Part shown: positions 4,321 through 53,742 of the stretch, piece by piece
How the letters are laid out: the number at the start of each line of letters is the position of its first letter
How positions within the stretch are numbered: position 1 is the stretch's first letter
Source of the DNA: Amycolatopsis thermalba
Lineage (GTDB): Bacteria > Actinomycetota > Actinomycetes > Mycobacteriales > Pseudonocardiaceae
NCBI RefSeq assembly: GCF_003385215.1
Contig: NZ_PQHW01000028.1
Span: forward strand, 1 to 64,000
Reading direction: 5' to 3'
DNA: 64,000 nt
Position numbers and translations under genes: made by a program
Notes under the pieces: model-generated
The model's input: the letters and a program-made list of their open reading frames with translations, nothing else
Databases searched by the model: none
What the model was told of the DNA's origin: nothing

Positions 4321-4334
4321 AGGTCTGGTTGGGG

Positions 4335-4508
4335 TAGTCGGTGCTGTCGCGTTGCCGGGCGGCGGTTGTGCAGGGCTGCCGCGCGGCCCCGGGGGTAGTC
4401 GGTGCTGTCGCGTTGCCGGGCGGCGGTTGTGCAGGGCTGCCGCGCGGCCCCGGGGGTAGTCGGTGCTGTCGCGTTGCCGGGCGGCGGTTGTGCAGGGCTG
4501 CCGCGCGG
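4335..4508. repeat. 61-bp tandem repeat, about 2.9 copies
   Basis: Direct repeats start at 4335, 4396 and 4457 (each TAGTCGGTGCTGTCGCG), giving an exact 61-bp period; the third copy decays after about 4508. Copies are almost identical. The block is downstream of the ABC permease stop and contains no credible gene. Nothing else was recognised in 3882-4573 apart from this and the two hairpin elements. Confidence 0.85.
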
Positions 4509-4573
4509 TCAGGCTGATTACCGGCCCGCTTGCGTTCCCGGCCGCCGGTCATGCAGGCCCGCCGCCGGTCTTC

Positions 4574-22884: not shown

Positions 22885-23965
22885 GAGGGTGCCGCTCGTA
22901 CCGCGCGAGATCGCCCCTCATGCGGCTGCGACTGCCGCAGGCGCCCCTCATGCGGCTGCGACTGCTGCAGGCCCTCCGGGTCCCCGCCTGGCCCGCCACC
23001 TGCGCGACGGTGCCTCTCACGCGGCACGAAAGGGCCACTCGCGCCATGGCGACTGGCGCAGCGGCCGCCTCGATCCCCTCTGGGAGACGGCACCGGCGCG
23101 GGTGTGCCTCTCGCTCCGCACGAACGTGCCACTCGTGCCGCTGCGGCTGCTGCACGACGGCCCCCGGTCTCCGCCGCCTGCGCGACTGTGCCTCTCGCGC
23201 TGCACGAAAGTGTGTCTCGTGCCGCGGCGAGTGGTGCATCTATCGCCTCGGCCTCCGCGTGGGCCCGGGCTTGCGTGAGTGTGTCTCTCGCTCCGCACGA
23301 ACGTGCCACTCGTGCGGCTGCGGCTGCTGCACGACGGCCCCCGGTCTCCGCCGCTTGCGCGACTGTGCCTCTCGCGCCGCACGAAAGTGTGTCTCGTGCC
23401 GCGGCGAGTGGTGCACCTATCGCCTCCGCCTGGGCCTGGAGCTTGCGCGACTGTGCCTCTCGCCCGGCACGAACGTGCCACTCGTGCCGCTGCGGCTGCT
23501 GCACGACGGCCCCCGGTCTCCGCCGCTTGCGCGACTGTGCCTCTCGCGCCGCACGAAAGTGTCTCTCGTGCCGCGGCGACTGGTGCACCTATCGCCGCGG
23601 CCTCCGCGAGGGCCCGGGGCTTGCGCGACTGTGCCTCTCGCCCGGCACGAAAGTGCCACTCGCGCCATGGCGACTGTCGCAACGGCTGCCTCAAACACCC
23701 CTGGGAGCCGACACTGCGCGAGTGTGCTTCTCGCAACGGCACGAGAGTGCCCCTCGTGCCGTTGCGACTGCCACCACGGCAGCCTCGATCCCGACCTCCG
23801 TCCGGGCACTTGCGTGACTGTGCCTCTCGCGCTGCCACGAAAAGCGCTACTCGCGCCGCCGCGACCCGGTACGACCGCCGCACCGCCCCACTCGGGCTCG
23901 GTCCTACGCGGCTGTGCCTCTCGCGCCGCCACGAAAGCGCCACTCGCGCGATCGCGAGTGCCGAG
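22885..23965. repeat. repeat array A, degenerate units with dimeric higher-order period
   Basis: A gene-free block of 11 clear units, and two shorter degenerate ones before 23001. Unit starts are near 23001, 23096, 23179, 23271, 23355, 23443, 23527, 23621, 23715, 23810 and 23905, so spacing is 83-95 bp. Each carries TGTGCCTCTCGCGC, then GCACGAAAGTG, then CACTCGTGCCGC; many form dyads such as GGCACGAG-N7-CTCGTGCC (23738-23760). Units 2, 4 and 6 share one tail and 3, 5 and 7 another, giving a repeated dimer of about 175 bp (23096, 23271, 23443, 23621). All reading frames look like composition artefacts. It lies between the hydratase promoter and the EspG gene. Confidence 0.8.
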
Positions 23966-30346: not shown

Positions 30347-33160
30347 TCAGTACCGCCGGTCGACGACCGTTCCGTTCGGGTACCACTGGATGTAGCCCCA
30401 CTGGAAGTTGTTCCGCCGTCCACCCGCCGAGGCGAACTCACCCGTCGTCGGGTAGCCGAGGTACGACTTCTCCCAGCCCAGGGCCGCCCACCGCGCCCGG
30501 ATCGCGCCGTAGATCTCGTGCGCGCCCGTCGACGGCGAGAAGTAGATCGACCCGTCCTTGCTGAAGTGGTTGTACCGGCCGATCCCGTCCGGCGTGATCA
30601 GCTCGTCGGTCACCGGGTAGCCCATCGGCCCGGCCTCCCAGCCGGTCTGCTGCCACACCTGCCGGATCAGGCCCCAGATCGAGTGGGCCCCGTTCGCCGG
30701 CGTCCAGTAGATCGACCCGTCCTTGCTGAAGTGGTTGTACCGGCCGATCCCGTCCGGCGTCACCAGCTCATCGGTCGTCGGGTAGCCGAGCGGGCCGGCC
30801 TCCCAGCCCTTCTCCGCCCACTTCTCCCGGATCGCACCCCAGATCGCGTGCGTTCCGGTGTTCGGCGAGAAGTAGATCGACGCCGTCAGCGTGCCGGGCG
30901 TGCCGATGTAGTGGTTGTACTTGCCCACCCCGTCCGGCGTGGTCAGCTCATCGGTCGTCGGCGCGCCGAAGCGGGTGTGACCGCCCAGCTCCAGGAACTT
31001 GCCCAGGATCGCGCCGTGGATCTCGTGCACGCCGGTCTGCGCCGACCAGTACATCCGGCCGTTGGCGTAGACCCGGTAGTTGACGTTGCCGTCCTGCACC
31101 TCGGGCGCGGTCGGGGCGCCCAGCAGCGCCCGCACCGCGGGGTCGCTGTTGTAGCGCTGGTCGATGGCCGTCGCGTAGGTCGCGGTCAGCGTCAGATCCG
31201 AGGTGACCGTCAACGTGCGCGTCCGGCTGGTCGCCCCGTTCTCCCAGGCGGAGAACTTGGACGCGCCGTCGGACGCGGTCTCCGCGGCCACCACGTCGAG
31301 CGTGACGCCCTCGGTCACCAGCGCGCTGTTCACGCCGCCCTCGGACGGGATCTGCAGCGACGCGGGCACGTTCGAGGTCAGCGTGAGCCGGTGCTGACGC
31401 GGCCAGGCCGTGTAGCTGGTGCTCGTGGACACGCCCGCGCTGTCGGTGGTCGTCGCCGTCAGGATCATCCGGGAGTCCGGGTGGTCGGTGAACGGGACGC
31501 TGAAGGTCGAGCCGCTGGCCCCCACGCCGGGGTGCGAGTGGCAGGTCTCCTCCTCCGGGCAGTGCAGCACGATGCTGGTCCAGTTGACCTGCAGCGCGCC
31601 GTCCTCGGCGTCGGTCGCGGTCGCCGACAGCGACACGGACTCACCGATCGCGAAGTTCTTCGCGGCCGGCTCGGTCAGCGTGATCACCGGCGTGTGGTTG
31701 GCCGGTGCGACGGTGAACGAGGTGGTCCCGGTCTTGTTGAGCGGGTCGCGCACGGTCAGCGTCGCGGTGAACGGGCCGTCGGCGGTGTAGGTGTGCGTGG
31801 TGGTCACGCCGGTGCCGGTCGTGCCGTCGCCGAAGTTCCACGTGTAGGTCAGCGCGTCACCGTCGTAGTCGGTCGACTCGGACGCGTCGAACGTGACGGT
31901 GCGGGTCGCCGGGTCGGAGGTGGTGGTCGCCTTCGCCACCGGGGCCGAGTTGCCCGTGACGTAGCTCAGGCGGCGCAGGTTGCCGGTGTAGATGTCGGCG
32001 TAGACGATGTCGCCGTTGGGGGCCGCGGCGAACTTGACCGGGCCGCCGATGTCGGTCGCCAGCGGAGGATCCTGCGGCGCCTGGGTCAGCGTGCCCGCGG
32101 TGTTCCAGCGCGCGGTCCACAGCTTCTTGCCGACGTAGTCGCCGAAGAAGAACGCACCCTGGTACTCGGCGGGGTAGCTGGATCCGGTGTAGACGATGCC
32201 GGCGGTGATGCTGTTGCCCTGGTTGGAGGCGTCACCGTGGTGGTACTCCCACAGCGGCGCGCTGTTCGTCACCGACGCGCACCCGGGCAGGTCCGCGTAG
32301 CCGGGGGTGCGGTGGTTGCCTTCCCAGCACGGCCAGGCGTAGTTGCGGCCCGGCTGCACCAGGTCGAGCTCCTCCCACTCGTTCCAGCCGACGTCACCGA
32401 CGACGGGCAGGCCGCTGCTGGGGTCGAGCGTGAACCGGAAGGGGCTGCGGAAGCCGCTCGCGAACACCTTGCTGCGGGTGGCGGTGGGGTTGGCCGCGTC
32501 GTAGTACGGGTTGGTCGACACGCCGCTGCCGTTGGCGTTGATGTGCAGGACCTTGCCCTGGGGGCTGTTGACGTCCAGCGTCTTCAGCGCGTTCTCGTCG
32601 ACGCGGGTGTAGTCGGCGTTGTCACCGGTGGACACCCACAGCGTGCCGTCGTCGGCCGCGATCAGACCGGTCATCCCGTGCACATCGGACCCGCCGGGCA
32701 TCTCGAGCAGCGTCTGCTCACCGGTGATGCCGGTCGGCTCGGGGGAACCGGTGACCGTCCACTTCGCCAGGCGCAGCGTGAACGACGTCGCGCCGGGCAC
32801 CGAGCGGATCAGGTAGATGGCCTTCGACGTGGCGTAGTCGGGCGCCACGGCCACGCTGACGAGGCCCAGGTCACCCTGGTTGCGTACGCTCAGGGTGCGC
32901 AGGGTCCGCGTGGTCTTGCCGTCGGTGGAGGTCCAGTTGAGCTTGCCGCCCTTGCCGGTGGTCAGGTAGCTGCCGTCCGGCAGGTAGGCGAAGTCGGTGA
33001 GGTCGAACGCGTTCTGACCGGTCGGCTGGTCGAGCAGCACGAAGCCGGGCGGTGGCGCGGCGGCGGCCTGCGGGGCCGAGATCGCCGTGACCAGGCCCAA
33101 CGTGATCAGTCCCGTCCCGATGAACGCGAGTAAGCGTCTGGCTAACCACCGAGAGTGCAT
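30347..33160 (-). CDS. secreted glucose/sorbosone dehydrogenase-like protein with PKD and LGFP repeats
   Basis: A 937-residue exported protein. Residues 1-35 form a signal peptide (LLAFIGTGLITLGLVTAIS, cleavage after AAA). Residues of about 45-400 form a beta-propeller of the glucose/sorbosone dehydrogenase type (FRSPFRFTLDP, GDVGWNEWEELDLV, QPGRNYAWPCWEG, CEG-like motif, GAFFFGDY). A PKD domain (FDASESTDYDGDALTYTW) and further beta domains follow, then five LGFP-type repeats at about 690-937 (LGAPTAPEV, RFGAPTTDEL, LGYPTTDELV, MGYPVTDELI, LGYPTTGEF). LGFP repeats are thought to attach proteins to the mycomembrane-type cell envelope. It may oxidise aldoses at the surface. Confidence 0.85.
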   Translation of the reverse strand: MHSRWLARRLLAFIGTGLITLGLVTAISAPQAAAAPPPGFVLLDQPTGQNAFDLTDFAYLPDGSYLTTGKGGKLNWTSTDGKTTRTLRTLSVRNQGDLGLVSVAVAPDYATSKAIYLIRSVPGATSFTLRLAKWTVTGSPEPTGITGEQTLLEMPGGSDVHGMTGLIAADDGTLWVSTGDNADYTRVDENALKTLDVNSPQGKVLHINANGSGVSTNPYYDAANPTATRSKVFASGFRSPFRFTLDPSSGLPVVGDVGWNEWEELDLVQPGRNYAWPCWEGNHRTPGYADLPGCASVTNSAPLWEYHHGDASNQGNSITAGIVYTGSSYPAEYQGAFFFGDYVGKKLWTARWNTAGTLTQAPQDPPLATDIGGPVKFAAAPNGDIVYADIYTGNLRRLSYVTGNSAPVAKATTTSDPATRTVTFDASESTDYDGDALTYTWNFGDGTTGTGVTTTHTYTADGPFTATLTVRDPLNKTGTTSFTVAPANHTPVITLTEPAAKNFAIGESVSLSATATDAEDGALQVNWTSIVLHCPEEETCHSHPGVGASGSTFSVPFTDHPDSRMILTATTTDSAGVSTSTSYTAWPRQHRLTLTSNVPASLQIPSEGGVNSALVTEGVTLDVVAAETASDGASKFSAWENGATSRTRTLTVTSDLTLTATYATAIDQRYNSDPAVRALLGAPTAPEVQDGNVNYRVYANGRMYWSAQTGVHEIHGAILGKFLELGGHTRFGAPTTDELTTPDGVGKYNHYIGTPGTLTASIYFSPNTGTHAIWGAIREKWAEKGWEAGPLGYPTTDELVTPDGIGRYNHFSKDGSIYWTPANGAHSIWGLIRQVWQQTGWEAGPMGYPVTDELITPDGIGRYNHFSKDGSIYFSPSTGAHEIYGAIRARWAALGWEKSYLGYPTTGEFASAGGRRNNFQWGYIQWYPNGTVVDRRY

Positions 33161-50997: not shown

Positions 50998-51017
50998 CGG
51001 TGCCTCCTGCGCTTTGG

Positions 51018-51049
51018 TTAGGTTCGACCTAATTTTAGGTCAAACCTAA
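51018..51049. promoter_or_regulatory. tandem TetR operators between mca and tetR
   Basis: Two near-palindromic 15-bp sites: TTAGGTTCGACCTAA (51018-51032) and TTAGGTCAAACCTAA (51035-51049), 17 bp apart start to start and mutual inverted repeats. They are in the 74-bp gap between mca (start 50997) and the TetR gene (51072). One TetR dimer per site is expected, and both genes could be controlled. The divergence and symmetry are seen directly. Confidence 0.8.
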
Positions 51050-51071
51050 TCAGTTGGCTAGGGTGGGGTGC

Positions 51072-51653
51072 ATGGAGCGCGGGTTGAGGAAGCAGCGGAC
51101 GCGGCAGGCGATCTCGGACGTGGCCACGCGGTTGTTCATCTCGCGGGGCTTCGAGGAGGTGACGATCGCGCAGGTCGCGGAGGCGGCGCAGGTGGCGAAG
51201 ATGACGGTGACCAACCACTTTCCGCGCAAGGAGGACCTGGTCTTCGACGTGCACGAGTCGTTCGTGGCGAGCCTGGCGGAGGTCCGGGGCCGGCCGCTGG
51301 TCGCCGCGTTCCGGCGGGCCTGGCGAGCGGGCCTCGAGCGGCGGGATGCGCTGCTGGGTTTTTCGGGGCCGGAGTTCGCCCGGATGATCGTCGAGAGCCC
51401 GACGCTGCTCGCCCGTCTGCGGGAGCTGCACGAGGAGCGGGAGAAAGCGCTGGCCGCATCGCTCCTCGACGAGCTGGACAGCGATACGGCGCGCGCGGTC
51501 GCCGCCCAGATCGGGAGCGTGGCGCGCCTACTCTTCGACGAGGTCCTGCGGCGTATCGCCGATGGTGAGCCGGAGGCCGAGGTCGCGGCGGCGGTGGGGC
51601 GCGCCGGAGAGCGGATGTTCGACCTACTGGAGTCCGGCCTGGGGTCGATTTAG
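51072..51653 (+). CDS. TetR family transcriptional regulator
   Basis: A 193-residue TetR protein from the ATG at 51072 (a TTG at 51054 would add six residues). Helix-turn-helix: GLRKQRTRQAISDVATRLFISRGFEEVTIAQVAEAAQVAKMTVTNHFPRKEDLVFD. It is divergent from mca, and twin operators lie between, so it probably represses mca in the absence of an electrophile or stress signal. The stop lies 24 bp before repeat array B. Confidence 0.88.
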   Translation: MERGLRKQRTRQAISDVATRLFISRGFEEVTIAQVAEAAQVAKMTVTNHFPRKEDLVFDVHESFVASLAEVRGRPLVAAFRRAWRAGLERRDALLGFSGPEFARMIVESPTLLARLRELHEEREKALAASLLDELDSDTARAVAAQIGSVARLLFDEVLRRIADGEPEAEVAAAVGRAGERMFDLLESGLGSI

Positions 51654-51677
51654 GTTCTTGTGTGTACCGGCGGGGCG

Positions 51678-52445
51678 ATGAATGGTCCGTTCATGTGTGC
51701 GCGAGTGGGCCGATGGTGGGGCGATGAACGGTCCGTTCACGAGGCGGCGAGTGAGCGGTGAGGGGACGATGAACGGTCCATTCATGAAGCGGCGAGTGGC
51801 CCAGCCATGCCTCGGTGACCGTCCCGTTGGTGTGTTAGCGAGTGGGCCAACGATGGCCCGATGAATGGCCCGTTCAGGAGGCGGCGAGTGGGCCGGTGGC
51901 GGGGCGATGAATGGTCCGTTCATGTGTGCGCGAGTGGGGCCAGTAGCGGCGTCGTGAATGGCCCATTCATATGTTCGCGAGTGGGGCCAGTGGTGGCGCC
52001 GTGAATGGCCCATTCATAACGGGAGTGGTGGGACCGCTCGTGGGGCGATGAACGGTCCGTTCATGCCTTCAGCCTTCATGACTGGGCCAGTAGTGGATCG
52101 ATGAATGGTCCGTTCATGAGTTGGGTGAGCGGGAGGGCCAATGGCGGCGCGATGAAGGGTCCATTCATGTCTTGGCGAGTGGCCCGGTGGTGTCTAGGCG
52201 AGGGGACTCTTCGGGCGGCGGTGAGTGGGCCAACGGTGGCCCGATGAACGGTCCATTCATGCCTTGTCGAGTGAGCCCGGTGGTGGCCTGGTGATTGGCC
52301 TGTTCGCGCGGTCGTGAGTGGGCCAGTGGTGGTGCGATGAAGGGACCGTTCGTGTATTCGCGAGTGGGCGAACGGACGTCCGATGAACGGTCCATTCACG
52401 CCGCGACGAAGGTCCCAGTCATATCGCGATGAATGGGCCGTTCAC
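51678..52445. repeat. repeat array B, 17-bp palindrome every 46 bp
   Basis: The palindrome RTGAAYGGNCCRTTCAY starts at 51678, 51724, 51769, 51861, 51907, 51954, 52001, 52048, 52101, 52152, 52244, 52337, 52383 and 52429, with degenerate members at 51815, 52198 and 52291. Spacing is 45-47 bp for most, 92 where the intermediate member is degenerate, and 53 and 51 at two places. Spacers of 29 bp are related, with a recurring GCGAGTGGGCC and TGGTGG. It lies between convergent tetR (ends 51653) and the ECF sigma gene (ends 52474); frames through it read as artefacts such as MNGPFI. No gene is seen in 51654-52473. Confidence 0.9.
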
Positions 52446-52473
52446 GCCCAGCTGGGCGACGAACAAACCCCAC

Positions 52474-53742
52474 TCACCCCCCAGCAGCCTCCGCCGCCCG
52501 GGCCAGCAGTACCTCCCGCTCCCGGGTGTTGCGCGTCAGCGCAGCCGCCCGTTCGAACTCCGCCCGCGCCTCCTCCCGCCGGCCGACCTTCGCGAGCAGG
52601 TCGCCCCGTACCGTCGGCAACAGGTGGTACCGCGCCATCGCCGGCAGCTGCGCCAGCGCGTCCACCAACGGCAGCGCCGCCTCCGGCCCGGCCGCCATCG
52701 ACACCGCCACCGCCCGGTTCAGCTCCACCACCGGCGACGGCGCCACCTCCGCCAGCTCCCCGTACAGCGCCGCGATCCGCGCCCAGTCGGTGTCCTCCGG
52801 CGTCCCCGCCCGGGCGTGGCACGCCGCGATCGCCGCCTGCAGCACGTACGGCCCGCGCACCTCCGACAACTTCTCGGCCCGCTCCAGGGCGGCCAACCCG
52901 TGCCCGATCAGCAACCGGTCCCACCTCGCGCGGTTCTGGTCCAGCAACAGGATCGGCTCACCGTCCGCCGTCACCCGCGCCCGGGACCGCGAAGCCTGCA
53001 ACTCCATCAGCGCCACCAACCCGAACACCTCGGGCTCCTGCGGCGCCAGCCCGGCCAGGATCCGCCCGAGCCGCATCGCGTCGGCGCACAACTGCGGCCT
53101 CATCCAGTCGTCACCGGCCGTCGCCGAGTAGCCCTCGTTGAAGATCAGGTACACGACCTCCAGCACGGACCCCAACCGCTCCGCCAGCTCCGGCCCGGCA
53201 GGCACCTCGAACGGCACCTTCTTCTGCGCCAGCGTCCGCTTCGCCCGCACGATCCGCTGCGCCACCGTCGCCTCCGGCACCAGGAACGCGCGCGCGATCT
53301 CCTCGGTCGTCAGCCCGCCCAGCAGCCGCAACGTCAGCGCCACCCGCGCCTCCGTCTTCAGCACCGGGTGGCACGCCGTGAAGATCAACCGCAGCAGGTC
53401 GTCGGGCACCTCGTCCGGCTCGACCGCGATCGCCTGCTGCGTCGTCTCCAGGTCGAGCCCGATCTCCTCGTGCTTGCGCTCGGCCATCTTCAGGTGCCGG
53501 AAGTGGTCGATCGCGCGGCGCTTGGCGATCGTCATCAGCCACGCGCCCGGGTTGGACGGCACCCCGGACGACGGCCACTGCTCCAGCGCCGCGACCAGCG
53601 CGTCCTGCGCCAGCTCCTCGGCCAGCCCCACATCACGGACCATGCGCGTCAGCGCCGCGATCAGCTTCGCCGACTCCATGCGCCAGACAGCGTCGATGGT
53701 GCGGTGTGCCTCGGTGACCGTCACGGTCACCGAGCACACCAC
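52474..53742 (-). CDS. ECF42-type sigma factor with C-terminal TPR-like domain
   Basis: A 422-residue sigma factor, about 190 residues longer than a normal ECF sigma. Region 2 (RMVRDVGLAEELAQDALVAALEQWPSSG, ...FRHLKMAER) and region 4 (TTEEIARAFLVPEATVAQRIVRAKRTLAQ) are followed by a DUF6596/TPR-like region rich in Ala and Leu (ALPLVDALAQLPAMARYHLL, REEARAEFERAAALT). This is the layout of the ECF42 group, which always occurs beside a DGPF/YCII protein, as found here at 53766. GTG at 53742 or 53730 are possible starts. It is followed by array B. Confidence 0.9.
   Translation of the reverse strand: MVCSVTVTVTEAHRTIDAVWRMESAKLIAALTRMVRDVGLAEELAQDALVAALEQWPSSGVPSNPGAWLMTIAKRRAIDHFRHLKMAERKHEEIGLDLETTQQAIAVEPDEVPDDLLRLIFTACHPVLKTEARVALTLRLLGGLTTEEIARAFLVPEATVAQRIVRAKRTLAQKKVPFEVPAGPELAERLGSVLEVVYLIFNEGYSATAGDDWMRPQLCADAMRLGRILAGLAPQEPEVFGLVALMELQASRSRARVTADGEPILLLDQNRARWDRLLIGHGLAALERAEKLSEVRGPYVLQAAIAACHARAGTPEDTDWARIAALYGELAEVAPSPVVELNRAVAVSMAAGPEAALPLVDALAQLPAMARYHLLPTVRGDLLAKVGRREEARAEFERAAALTRNTREREVLLARAAEAAGG
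53710..53734. promoter_or_regulatory. 25-bp near-perfect palindrome at the 5' end of the sigma factor gene
   Basis: CTCGGTGACCG, then a central TCA, then CGGTCACCGAG: 11-bp arms perfect and a one-base centre mismatch. It spans the first codons of the sigma gene, including the alternative GTG starts. It could be an operator or a translation-regulating stem; a coincidence of repetitive ValThr codons (VTVTVT) is also possible, since the DNA repeats in the coding sequence. Confidence 0.45.

What the first reader, a model, noticed from the sequence alone, without database searches (positions are those of the whole stretch)
51678..52445. Regular 46-bp array of 17-bp palindromes between convergent genes
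About 17 positions of RTGAAYGGNCCRTTCAY occur at a nearly constant 46-bp spacing; where a site is missing, a degraded version is found exactly where expected (51815, 52198, 52291). The 17-bp site is a true palindrome and the 29-bp spacers are related to each other, so this is neither a CRISPR array nor a simple satellite. Regular palindromes at fixed spacing resemble protein-binding arrays such as centromere-like or iteron clusters, but no partition or replication gene is adjacent. Selection seems to keep both arms of the palindrome, as the copies often have compensatory A/G and T/C changes at symmetric positions; that would mean a dimeric protein or RNA stem.
Basis: partly seen in the sequence, partly recalled or inferred. 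Interest (0 to 1): 0.78.

Follow-up and report, generated by a model that had tools for sequence, protein, structure and literature searches.

The report
Palindrome satellite arrays in Amycolatopsis
Between two genes of a soil bacterium lies one of several repeat arrays built around the same 17-letter near-palindrome, which evolution preserves while the DNA between copies drifts; it is most likely a landing strip for an unidentified DNA-binding protein.

Summary
The array is real. There are 14 sites within 2 mismatches of RTGAAYGGNCCRTTCAY against 0.15 expected, plus degraded units in register. It fills the gap between convergent TetR and ECF sigma genes in an Amycolatopsis genome. It is one of a family: 8 of 19 genus genomes hold 11-43 exact sites at two or more loci. 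Unit length (46-50, 52-54, 74, 84-85, about 94 bp) largely follows the locus; the palindrome is shared. In 9 ortholog pairs its 12 core bases differ at 24 of 589 positions against 372 of 2365 in spacers. A half-site RYGAnnGG sits exactly 23 bp from the palindrome start in 221 of 495 flanks, in 18 of 21 locus groups. The window has a second array on a 22/23-bp pitch near 23.0-23.8 kb. An RNA stem, REP/RAYT and coding are disfavoured. Best reading: binding lattice for an unidentified dimeric DNA-binding protein, kept as a variant of the enigmatic fixed-pitch bacterial satellites of Subirana and Messeguer. The protein and its function were not found.

The parts
51654..52473 (.). Whole intergenic array between the stop codons of the convergent TetR and sigma genes
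51678..51694 (+). P1 site, exact
51724..51740 (+). P1 site, exact
51769..51785 (+). P1 site, exact
51815..51831 (+). P1 position, degraded (4 mismatches), in register
51861..51877 (+). P1 site, 1 mismatch
51907..51923 (+). P1 site, exact
51954..51970 (+). P1 site, exact
52001..52017 (+). P1 site, exact
52048..52064 (+). P1 site, exact; the only copy in the window with all 8 pairs
52101..52117 (+). P1 site, exact
52152..52168 (+). P1 site, 1 mismatch
52198..52214 (+). P1 position, degraded (7 mismatches), in register
52244..52260 (+). P1 site, exact
52291..52307 (+). P1 position, degraded (3 mismatches), in register
52337..52353 (+). P1 site, 2 mismatches
52383..52399 (+). P1 site, exact
52429..52445 (+). 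P1 site, exact
51701..51708 (+). Example of the secondary half-site H (GCGAGTGG) exactly 23 bp after a P1 start; an H scoring 5-6 of 6 follows 12 of the 17 units
51054..51653 (+). TetR-family regulator; its end borders the array
52474..53742 (-). ECF sigma factor with DUF6596; its end borders the array
22990..23870 (.). Second array with no P1-like site (none within 3 mismatches), half-sites on a 22/23-bp pitch, TRF period 84/172; between two minus-strand genes; a matching half-site pair lies in A. deserti (G010:C4 about 203.7 kb)

Best explanation
The array is one of a family of intergenic satellite arrays in one group of Amycolatopsis species. Each unit carries one 17-bp binding site (P1, RTGAAYGGNCCRTTCAY) for a sequence-specific, dimeric DNA-binding protein. 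Weaker half-sites often lie 23 bp to either side, so neighbouring dimers can dock on a fixed 23-bp lattice. Unit number and length change by tandem duplication and deletion, while selection for binding purges changes in the core and leaves the centre and the R/Y positions free. Shown: the family, the shared core, constraint on the core, the 23-bp register, and placement mostly between convergent or tandem genes rather than divergent ones. Inferred: that the constraint comes from a protein, that it is a dimer, and that its role is local nucleoid organisation or insulation between transcription units. The protein is not identified.
For: Same palindrome at loci with different spacers and unit lengths. 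In 9 aligned ortholog array pairs the core differs at 24 of 589 positions against 372 of 2365 in spacers (p 2e-16; core rate is the lower in each of the 9 pairs). In 8 of them positions 6/12 change by 28 transitions to 1 transversion while spacers show 155 to 192, and the centre is free, 19 of 47. Within arrays core identity is 0.87-1.00 against a spacer mean of 0.45-0.77, in each of 12 arrays tested. Half-site at exactly +23: 221 of 495 flanks, 18 of 21 locus groups, against 77 hits summed over 8 neighbouring offsets, although P1-to-P1 steps vary. Dyad symmetry stops at 17 bp. In G016, whose best match to the window's TetR is only 40% identical, P1 arrays sit at two loci not matched by flanking genes to the other arrays.
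Against: No binding protein found; no binding data. The secondary half-sites are no better conserved than spacer between orthologs (56 of 346 against 199 of 1258), and flank consensus sequences are partly shared between loci, so the register may be inherited from a common ancestor rather than selected. The two G016 arrays mostly lack it (5 of 28 and 0 of 14 flanks). The best 12-column spacer stretch reaches 0.50-0.92 identity within arrays. Arrays are gained and lost: absent at the same junction in G009, G005 and G011. Eleven of 19 genus genomes have no exact site or only 1-2, so the function is not essential to the genus. Sites were found by matching P1, which favours a conserved core. The 9 pairs are not all independent (L040 is used twice), and the contrast is weaker in L038/L055 (3 of 47 against 41 of 322) and L039/L037 (1 of 13 against 25 of 210; over its whole alignment 0.74 and 0.74).
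Confidence: 0.55

Rival explanations
1. Neutral or selfish minisatellite: a palindrome-bearing unit expanded by slippage or unequal recombination at tolerant 3' ends, seeded from a common ancestor, without a binding protein.
For: Copy number differs between orthologs and arrays come and go. Placement avoids divergent promoters, as neutral DNA would. The shared 23-bp register and flank sequences could be ancestry. Many genomes of the genus and most outside it lack the arrays.
Against: Slippage copies the whole unit, so core and spacer should diverge equally; they do not. Transversions are almost absent at 6/12 but common in spacer.
Confidence: 0.25
2. RNA-level element: hairpins in 3' UTRs acting as bidirectional terminators, mRNA stabilisers or small RNAs.
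For: Location at gene ends and between convergent genes. Both strands fold better than 20 shuffles each, z -6.6 and -6.3, as any array of inverted repeats would. 52-nt satellites of Bacillus coagulans are reported as transcribed (PMC8625621, passages).
Against: No compensatory pairs, and negative association at 6/12. In tandem arrays the sense strand shows 36 T-G (wobble-tolerant) against 34 C-A (mismatch) of 111 sites, so no preference. Flanks do not extend the stem. The terminator scan found nothing inside the array (one site at 51635-51647, at the TetR end). Rfam gave no match in the array; the only hit in 51000-53000 is mir-1814 at 51006-51056, E 0.11, far below its threshold.
Confidence: 0.12
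3. REP/BIME-like mobile palindromes spread by a RAYT/TnpA-REP transposase.
For: Extragenic, palindromic, repeated, near 3' ends.
Against: Y1_Tnp (PF01797) has no match in 18 of 19 genus genomes; the one match (G011, 36 of 121 profile positions) lies in a genome without an exact P1 site. Copies lie mostly in tandem arrays, with a few singles.
Confidence: 0.04
4. Operators of the adjacent TetR gene.
For: A TetR gene flanks the window array and 4 others of 20 array loci scanned; dyads of this size are typical of TetR operators (recalled).
Against: The array is at the 3' end of the TetR gene, and 15 of 20 scanned array loci have no TetR neighbour. Regulators of any kind flank 11 of 20 array loci but also 6-7 of 15 control gaps.
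Confidence: 0.03

Closest known systems
Fixed-length bacterial satellites of Subirana and Messeguer (20-23 or 52 nt; 22/44 recalled)
   Same: Non-coding tandem arrays; short sequences and their reverse shared by the arrays of a species; species-specific; partly conserved between relatives; unit lengths near 46 and 52; function unknown, a DNA-polymerising protein proposed (PMC8161180, sections 3, 10 and 14 read). A. mediterranei is tabulated with 23 satellites (PMC6749651, passages).
   Different: Here unit length is NOT constant in a genome (46 to about 94), while a 17-bp palindrome and a 23-bp register are. PMC8161180 says 52-nt repeats occur only in Firmicutes; here 52-54-bp arrays occur in Amycolatopsis. 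Its main text has no word beginning palindrom or hairpin.
REP / BIME elements
   Same: Extragenic palindromes, repeated, at gene ends; BIMEs have regular spacing and bind proteins (PMC2817692, start of abstract in the listing).
   Different: No full RAYT found; no covarying stem; head-to-tail arrays, where BIMEs alternate orientation.
parS/parC centromere-like arrays and iterons
   Same: Regular arrays of protein-binding sites (recalled).
   Different: No partition or replication gene among the window neighbours scanned; 2 to about 9 P1 loci per array-bearing genome, spread over megabases in three genomes with complete or near-complete contigs.
CRISPR arrays
   Same: Regular repeat and spacer pitch.
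   Different: Spacers are related to each other and the repeat is degenerate.

Membership tests
Subirana-Messeguer bacterial satellites | Non-coding tandem repeats, 4 or more units, unit 10-270 nt | tested here: met
Subirana-Messeguer bacterial satellites | Constant repeat size, 20-23 or 52 nt | tested here: not met
   46-50, 52-54, 74, 84-85, about 94 within single genomes; a 23-bp sub-period is present
Subirana-Messeguer bacterial satellites | Short sequences and their reverse shared by the arrays of a species | tested here: met
   P1 in the arrays fetched, which were found by P1; the second array of the window shares only the half-site
REP/BIME | Associated RAYT (Y1_Tnp) transposase | tested here: not met
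   18 of 19 genomes without; 1 partial match in a genome lacking P1
REP/BIME | Hairpin with compensatory stem changes | tested here: not met
REP/BIME | Conserved tag next to the hairpin (GTAG- or CGTC-tagged, title of PMC3733652) | not tested
   not searched for
Dimeric protein-binding array | Palindromic core under purifying selection | tested here: met
Dimeric protein-binding array | Cognate protein binds the site | not testable with these tools
   no binding data; six motif strings absent from the paper library
parS/iteron | Adjacent par or rep genes | tested here: not met
   none in the Pfam results for neighbours of 20 array loci
CRISPR | Unrelated spacers between near-identical repeats | tested here: not met
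Protein-coding repeat | Open frame favoured in the P1 frame | tested here: not met
   median 35 codons to stop in the P1 frame, 33 in frame +2; frame +1 is mostly closed at once by TGA inside P1, which makes the pooled test there uninformative

The most novel reading that the evidence does not exclude
A chromosome-organising protein of one group of Amycolatopsis polymerises on 23-bp lattices of palindromic sites at up to about 9 satellite loci per genome, mostly on one side of oriC: a bacterial counterpart of satellite-bound chromatin. The fixed-length satellites of other bacteria would be its analogues with other motifs.
Probability: 0.18. Interest if true: 0.8.

Novelty: new variant of a known kind. 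Interest (0 to 1): 0.55.

Why it matters
Bacterial satellites of fixed pitch have been called enigmatic (PMC8161180). Here arrays of one family can be compared between orthologs and between loci, which separates what is kept (a 17-bp core and a 23-bp register) from what drifts (spacers, unit length, copy number). That turns 'is it RNA, protein-binding or junk?' into a direct test: pull down the binder with an array fragment.

Tried and rejected
Arm covariation / RNA stem: rejected. Extended 45-bp palindrome: flanks are no more complementary than within-array shuffles. A second true palindrome in each spacer: in the arrays of 46-52 bp the best spacer dyad is 0.38-0.53 against 0.70-0.88 for P1 (up to 0.68 in longer units); what exists is a half-site at +23. 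RAYT: one partial match in 19 genomes. Coding: the degeneracy of P1 coincides with Met-Asn-Gly-Pro-Phe codons on both strands (my reading), but the P1 frame is no longer than frame +2. Association with regulator genes: 11 of 20 array loci against 6-7 of 15 controls, not clearly enriched (two of the 20, L013 and L047, fall in one locus group); the p of 0.0007 used a recalled base rate and is void. Mobile elements: no similar DNA in plasmids or phages; two of the possible 15-mers gave 19 and 21 viral stretches, each with one hit. Arrays of other palindromes: my detector refound P1 arrays and gave none in 19 mononucleotide-shuffled loci; in 400 kb of G013 and 400 kb of G005 it listed 7 three-copy clusters without regular spacing and no P1-like array; that sample is too small to exclude them, and its TRF rows were not followed up. 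Paper searches: six motif strings, no paper; arrays in Amycolatopsis or Actinobacteria, judged from listings, named nothing that describes them; supplements were not read.

Full report
OBSERVATION. The window holds 14 sites within 2 mismatches of RTGAAYGGNCCRTTCAY, all at 51678-52445, where 0.15 are expected. TRF gives period 46 and 14.8 copies. Three degraded units lie in register. The array occupies the 820 bp between the stop codons of a TetR gene and a DUF6596 ECF sigma gene.

ORGANISM AND SPREAD. The sigma protein is 94-95% identical to those of Amycolatopsis tucumanensis and A. deserti, so the genome is an Amycolatopsis. Its assembly (G000, 7.24 Mb, 222 contigs) has 41 exact sites and 55 with up to 1 mismatch, none for the pattern read backwards, in clusters on contigs C45, C58, C144, C148 and C170 plus one site on C147. 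In the genus 12 of 19 genomes have at least one exact site: eight have 11-43 and four have 1-2; seven have none (counts for G002, G003 and G017 also). Of 42 relatives outside the genus, four have 2-3.

ANATOMY. Fetched loci cover the places listed for G003, G009, G010, G013, G016 and G017 and 15 of the 35 sites of G002, whose listing was cut off. Arrays have unit lengths 46-50, 52-54, 74, 84-85 or about 94 bp. Flanking genes sort the array loci into 22 groups. Unit length largely follows the group: 52-54 in four genomes (84 in a fifth, G003), 46-50 in four, 74 in four, 84-85 in four; other groups are mixed (74-115; 73-98). Dyad symmetry is strong over 17 bp and stops there: flank complementarity equals within-array shuffles. 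From a P1 start, a half-site RYGAnnGG (5 of 6) occurs at exactly +23 in 221 of 495 flanks, in 18 of 21 groups with flanks to score, against 77 at eight neighbouring offsets together; background is 0.025. The window array shows autocorrelation at 23 as well as 46. Exact composite patterns of half-site plus P1 are found in 4 of 19 genomes, none for the reversed pattern.

EVOLUTION. In G009, G005 and G011 the gap before the sigma gene is short and holds no array, judged by eye; G009 has another P1 array about 7 kb away. G003 has about 650 bp of other repeats. In G008 and G015 the sigma gene does not follow, by eye. In 9 aligned ortholog array pairs, restricted to blocks of at least 65% local identity, the 12 core positions differ at 24 of 589 and spacers at 372 of 2365 (p 2e-16). 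One search, on 8 of these 9, gives 23 of 576 against 347 of 2155, positions 6/12 at 29 of 94 (28 transitions), the centre at 19 of 47. The ninth pair, L039/L037, had been left out because its whole alignment was poor (core 0.74, spacer 0.74). The pairs are not fully independent. Secondary half-sites differ at 56 of 346, like spacer: their register is striking but not shown to be under selection.

COVARIATION. At positions 6/12 the two arms are negatively associated (odds ratio 0.29; stratified 0.31): a copy tends to have one TGAAC and one TGAAT arm. This contradicts compensatory change and has no explanation yet.

CONTEXT. Of 47 clusters with an exact site, 20 lie between convergent genes, 24 between tandem genes (2 with a gene called over the site), 1 between divergent genes and 2 are undetermined (home-made gene finder). 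By locus group, tallied by hand, 10: 11: 1; other gaps of at least 200 bp in the same loci are 25: 76: 36; p 0.010 for convergent and 0.028 for divergent (one search used 26 for 25). In five genomes with dnaA on the same contig, a hand tally of 21 placed groups gives 17 to 4 on the side upstream of dnaA (p 0.007; 14 to 4, p 0.03 without single-site groups). A broader pattern gives 23 of 23 sites in G013 and 54 of 57 in G017 on that side (ter taken as opposite dnaA), but only about 21 to 10 loci in G003, and G016 is opposite. This is a lead, found after the fact.

MECHANISM. A conserved core with R/Y-degenerate and free central positions, shared in trans by arrays with different spacers, is what a sequence-specific dimeric DNA-binding protein would leave. 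The 23-bp register fits adjacent dimers. The RNA rival fails on covariation and strand preference; a neutral satellite fails on the core/spacer contrast but could explain gain, loss, placement and shared ancestry.

LITERATURE. Subirana and Messeguer describe fixed-length bacterial satellites of unknown function and suggest a protein polymerising on DNA (PMC8161180: outline, sections 3, 10 and 14 and passages; PMC6749651: outline and passages; PMC8625621: passages). Their J Bacteriol 2020 paper was not held; its '22/44 or 52' sizes are recalled. This family is a variant in which motif and sub-pitch, not unit length, are constant.

Noticed in passing
window 22990-23870: A second array (TRF period 84/172) whose half-sites RYGAnnGK come in groups at 22 and 23 bp, without P1 sites; a matching pair exists in A. 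deserti about 29 kb from its P1 array, as in the window (28-29 kb).
   Followed up: partly
window 4331-4565: Tandem repeat of 61 bp, 2.9 identical copies, extending as a 122-bp period, in a gap between convergent genes.
   Followed up: no
window 30470-30887: 165-bp tandem repeat, 2.5 copies; coding status not checked.
   Followed up: no
L005 1471-1577 (G031): In another genus of the family, four P1-like palindromes at exactly 30 bp with near-identical spacers, an apparently independent small array.
   Followed up: no
L048 10042 and L057 9945: An identical single site GTGAACGGGCCGTTCAC lies inside a called gene in G003 and G009; the G003 copy matches the diacylglycerol kinase family.
   Followed up: no
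P1 sites of array loci: Copies with T in both arms are rarer than expected and mixed C/T arms commoner (stratified odds ratio 0.31); unexplained.
   Followed up: partly
G003, G009, G013, G017 chromosomes: Array loci lie mostly on one side of dnaA; G016 is the exception.
   Followed up: partly
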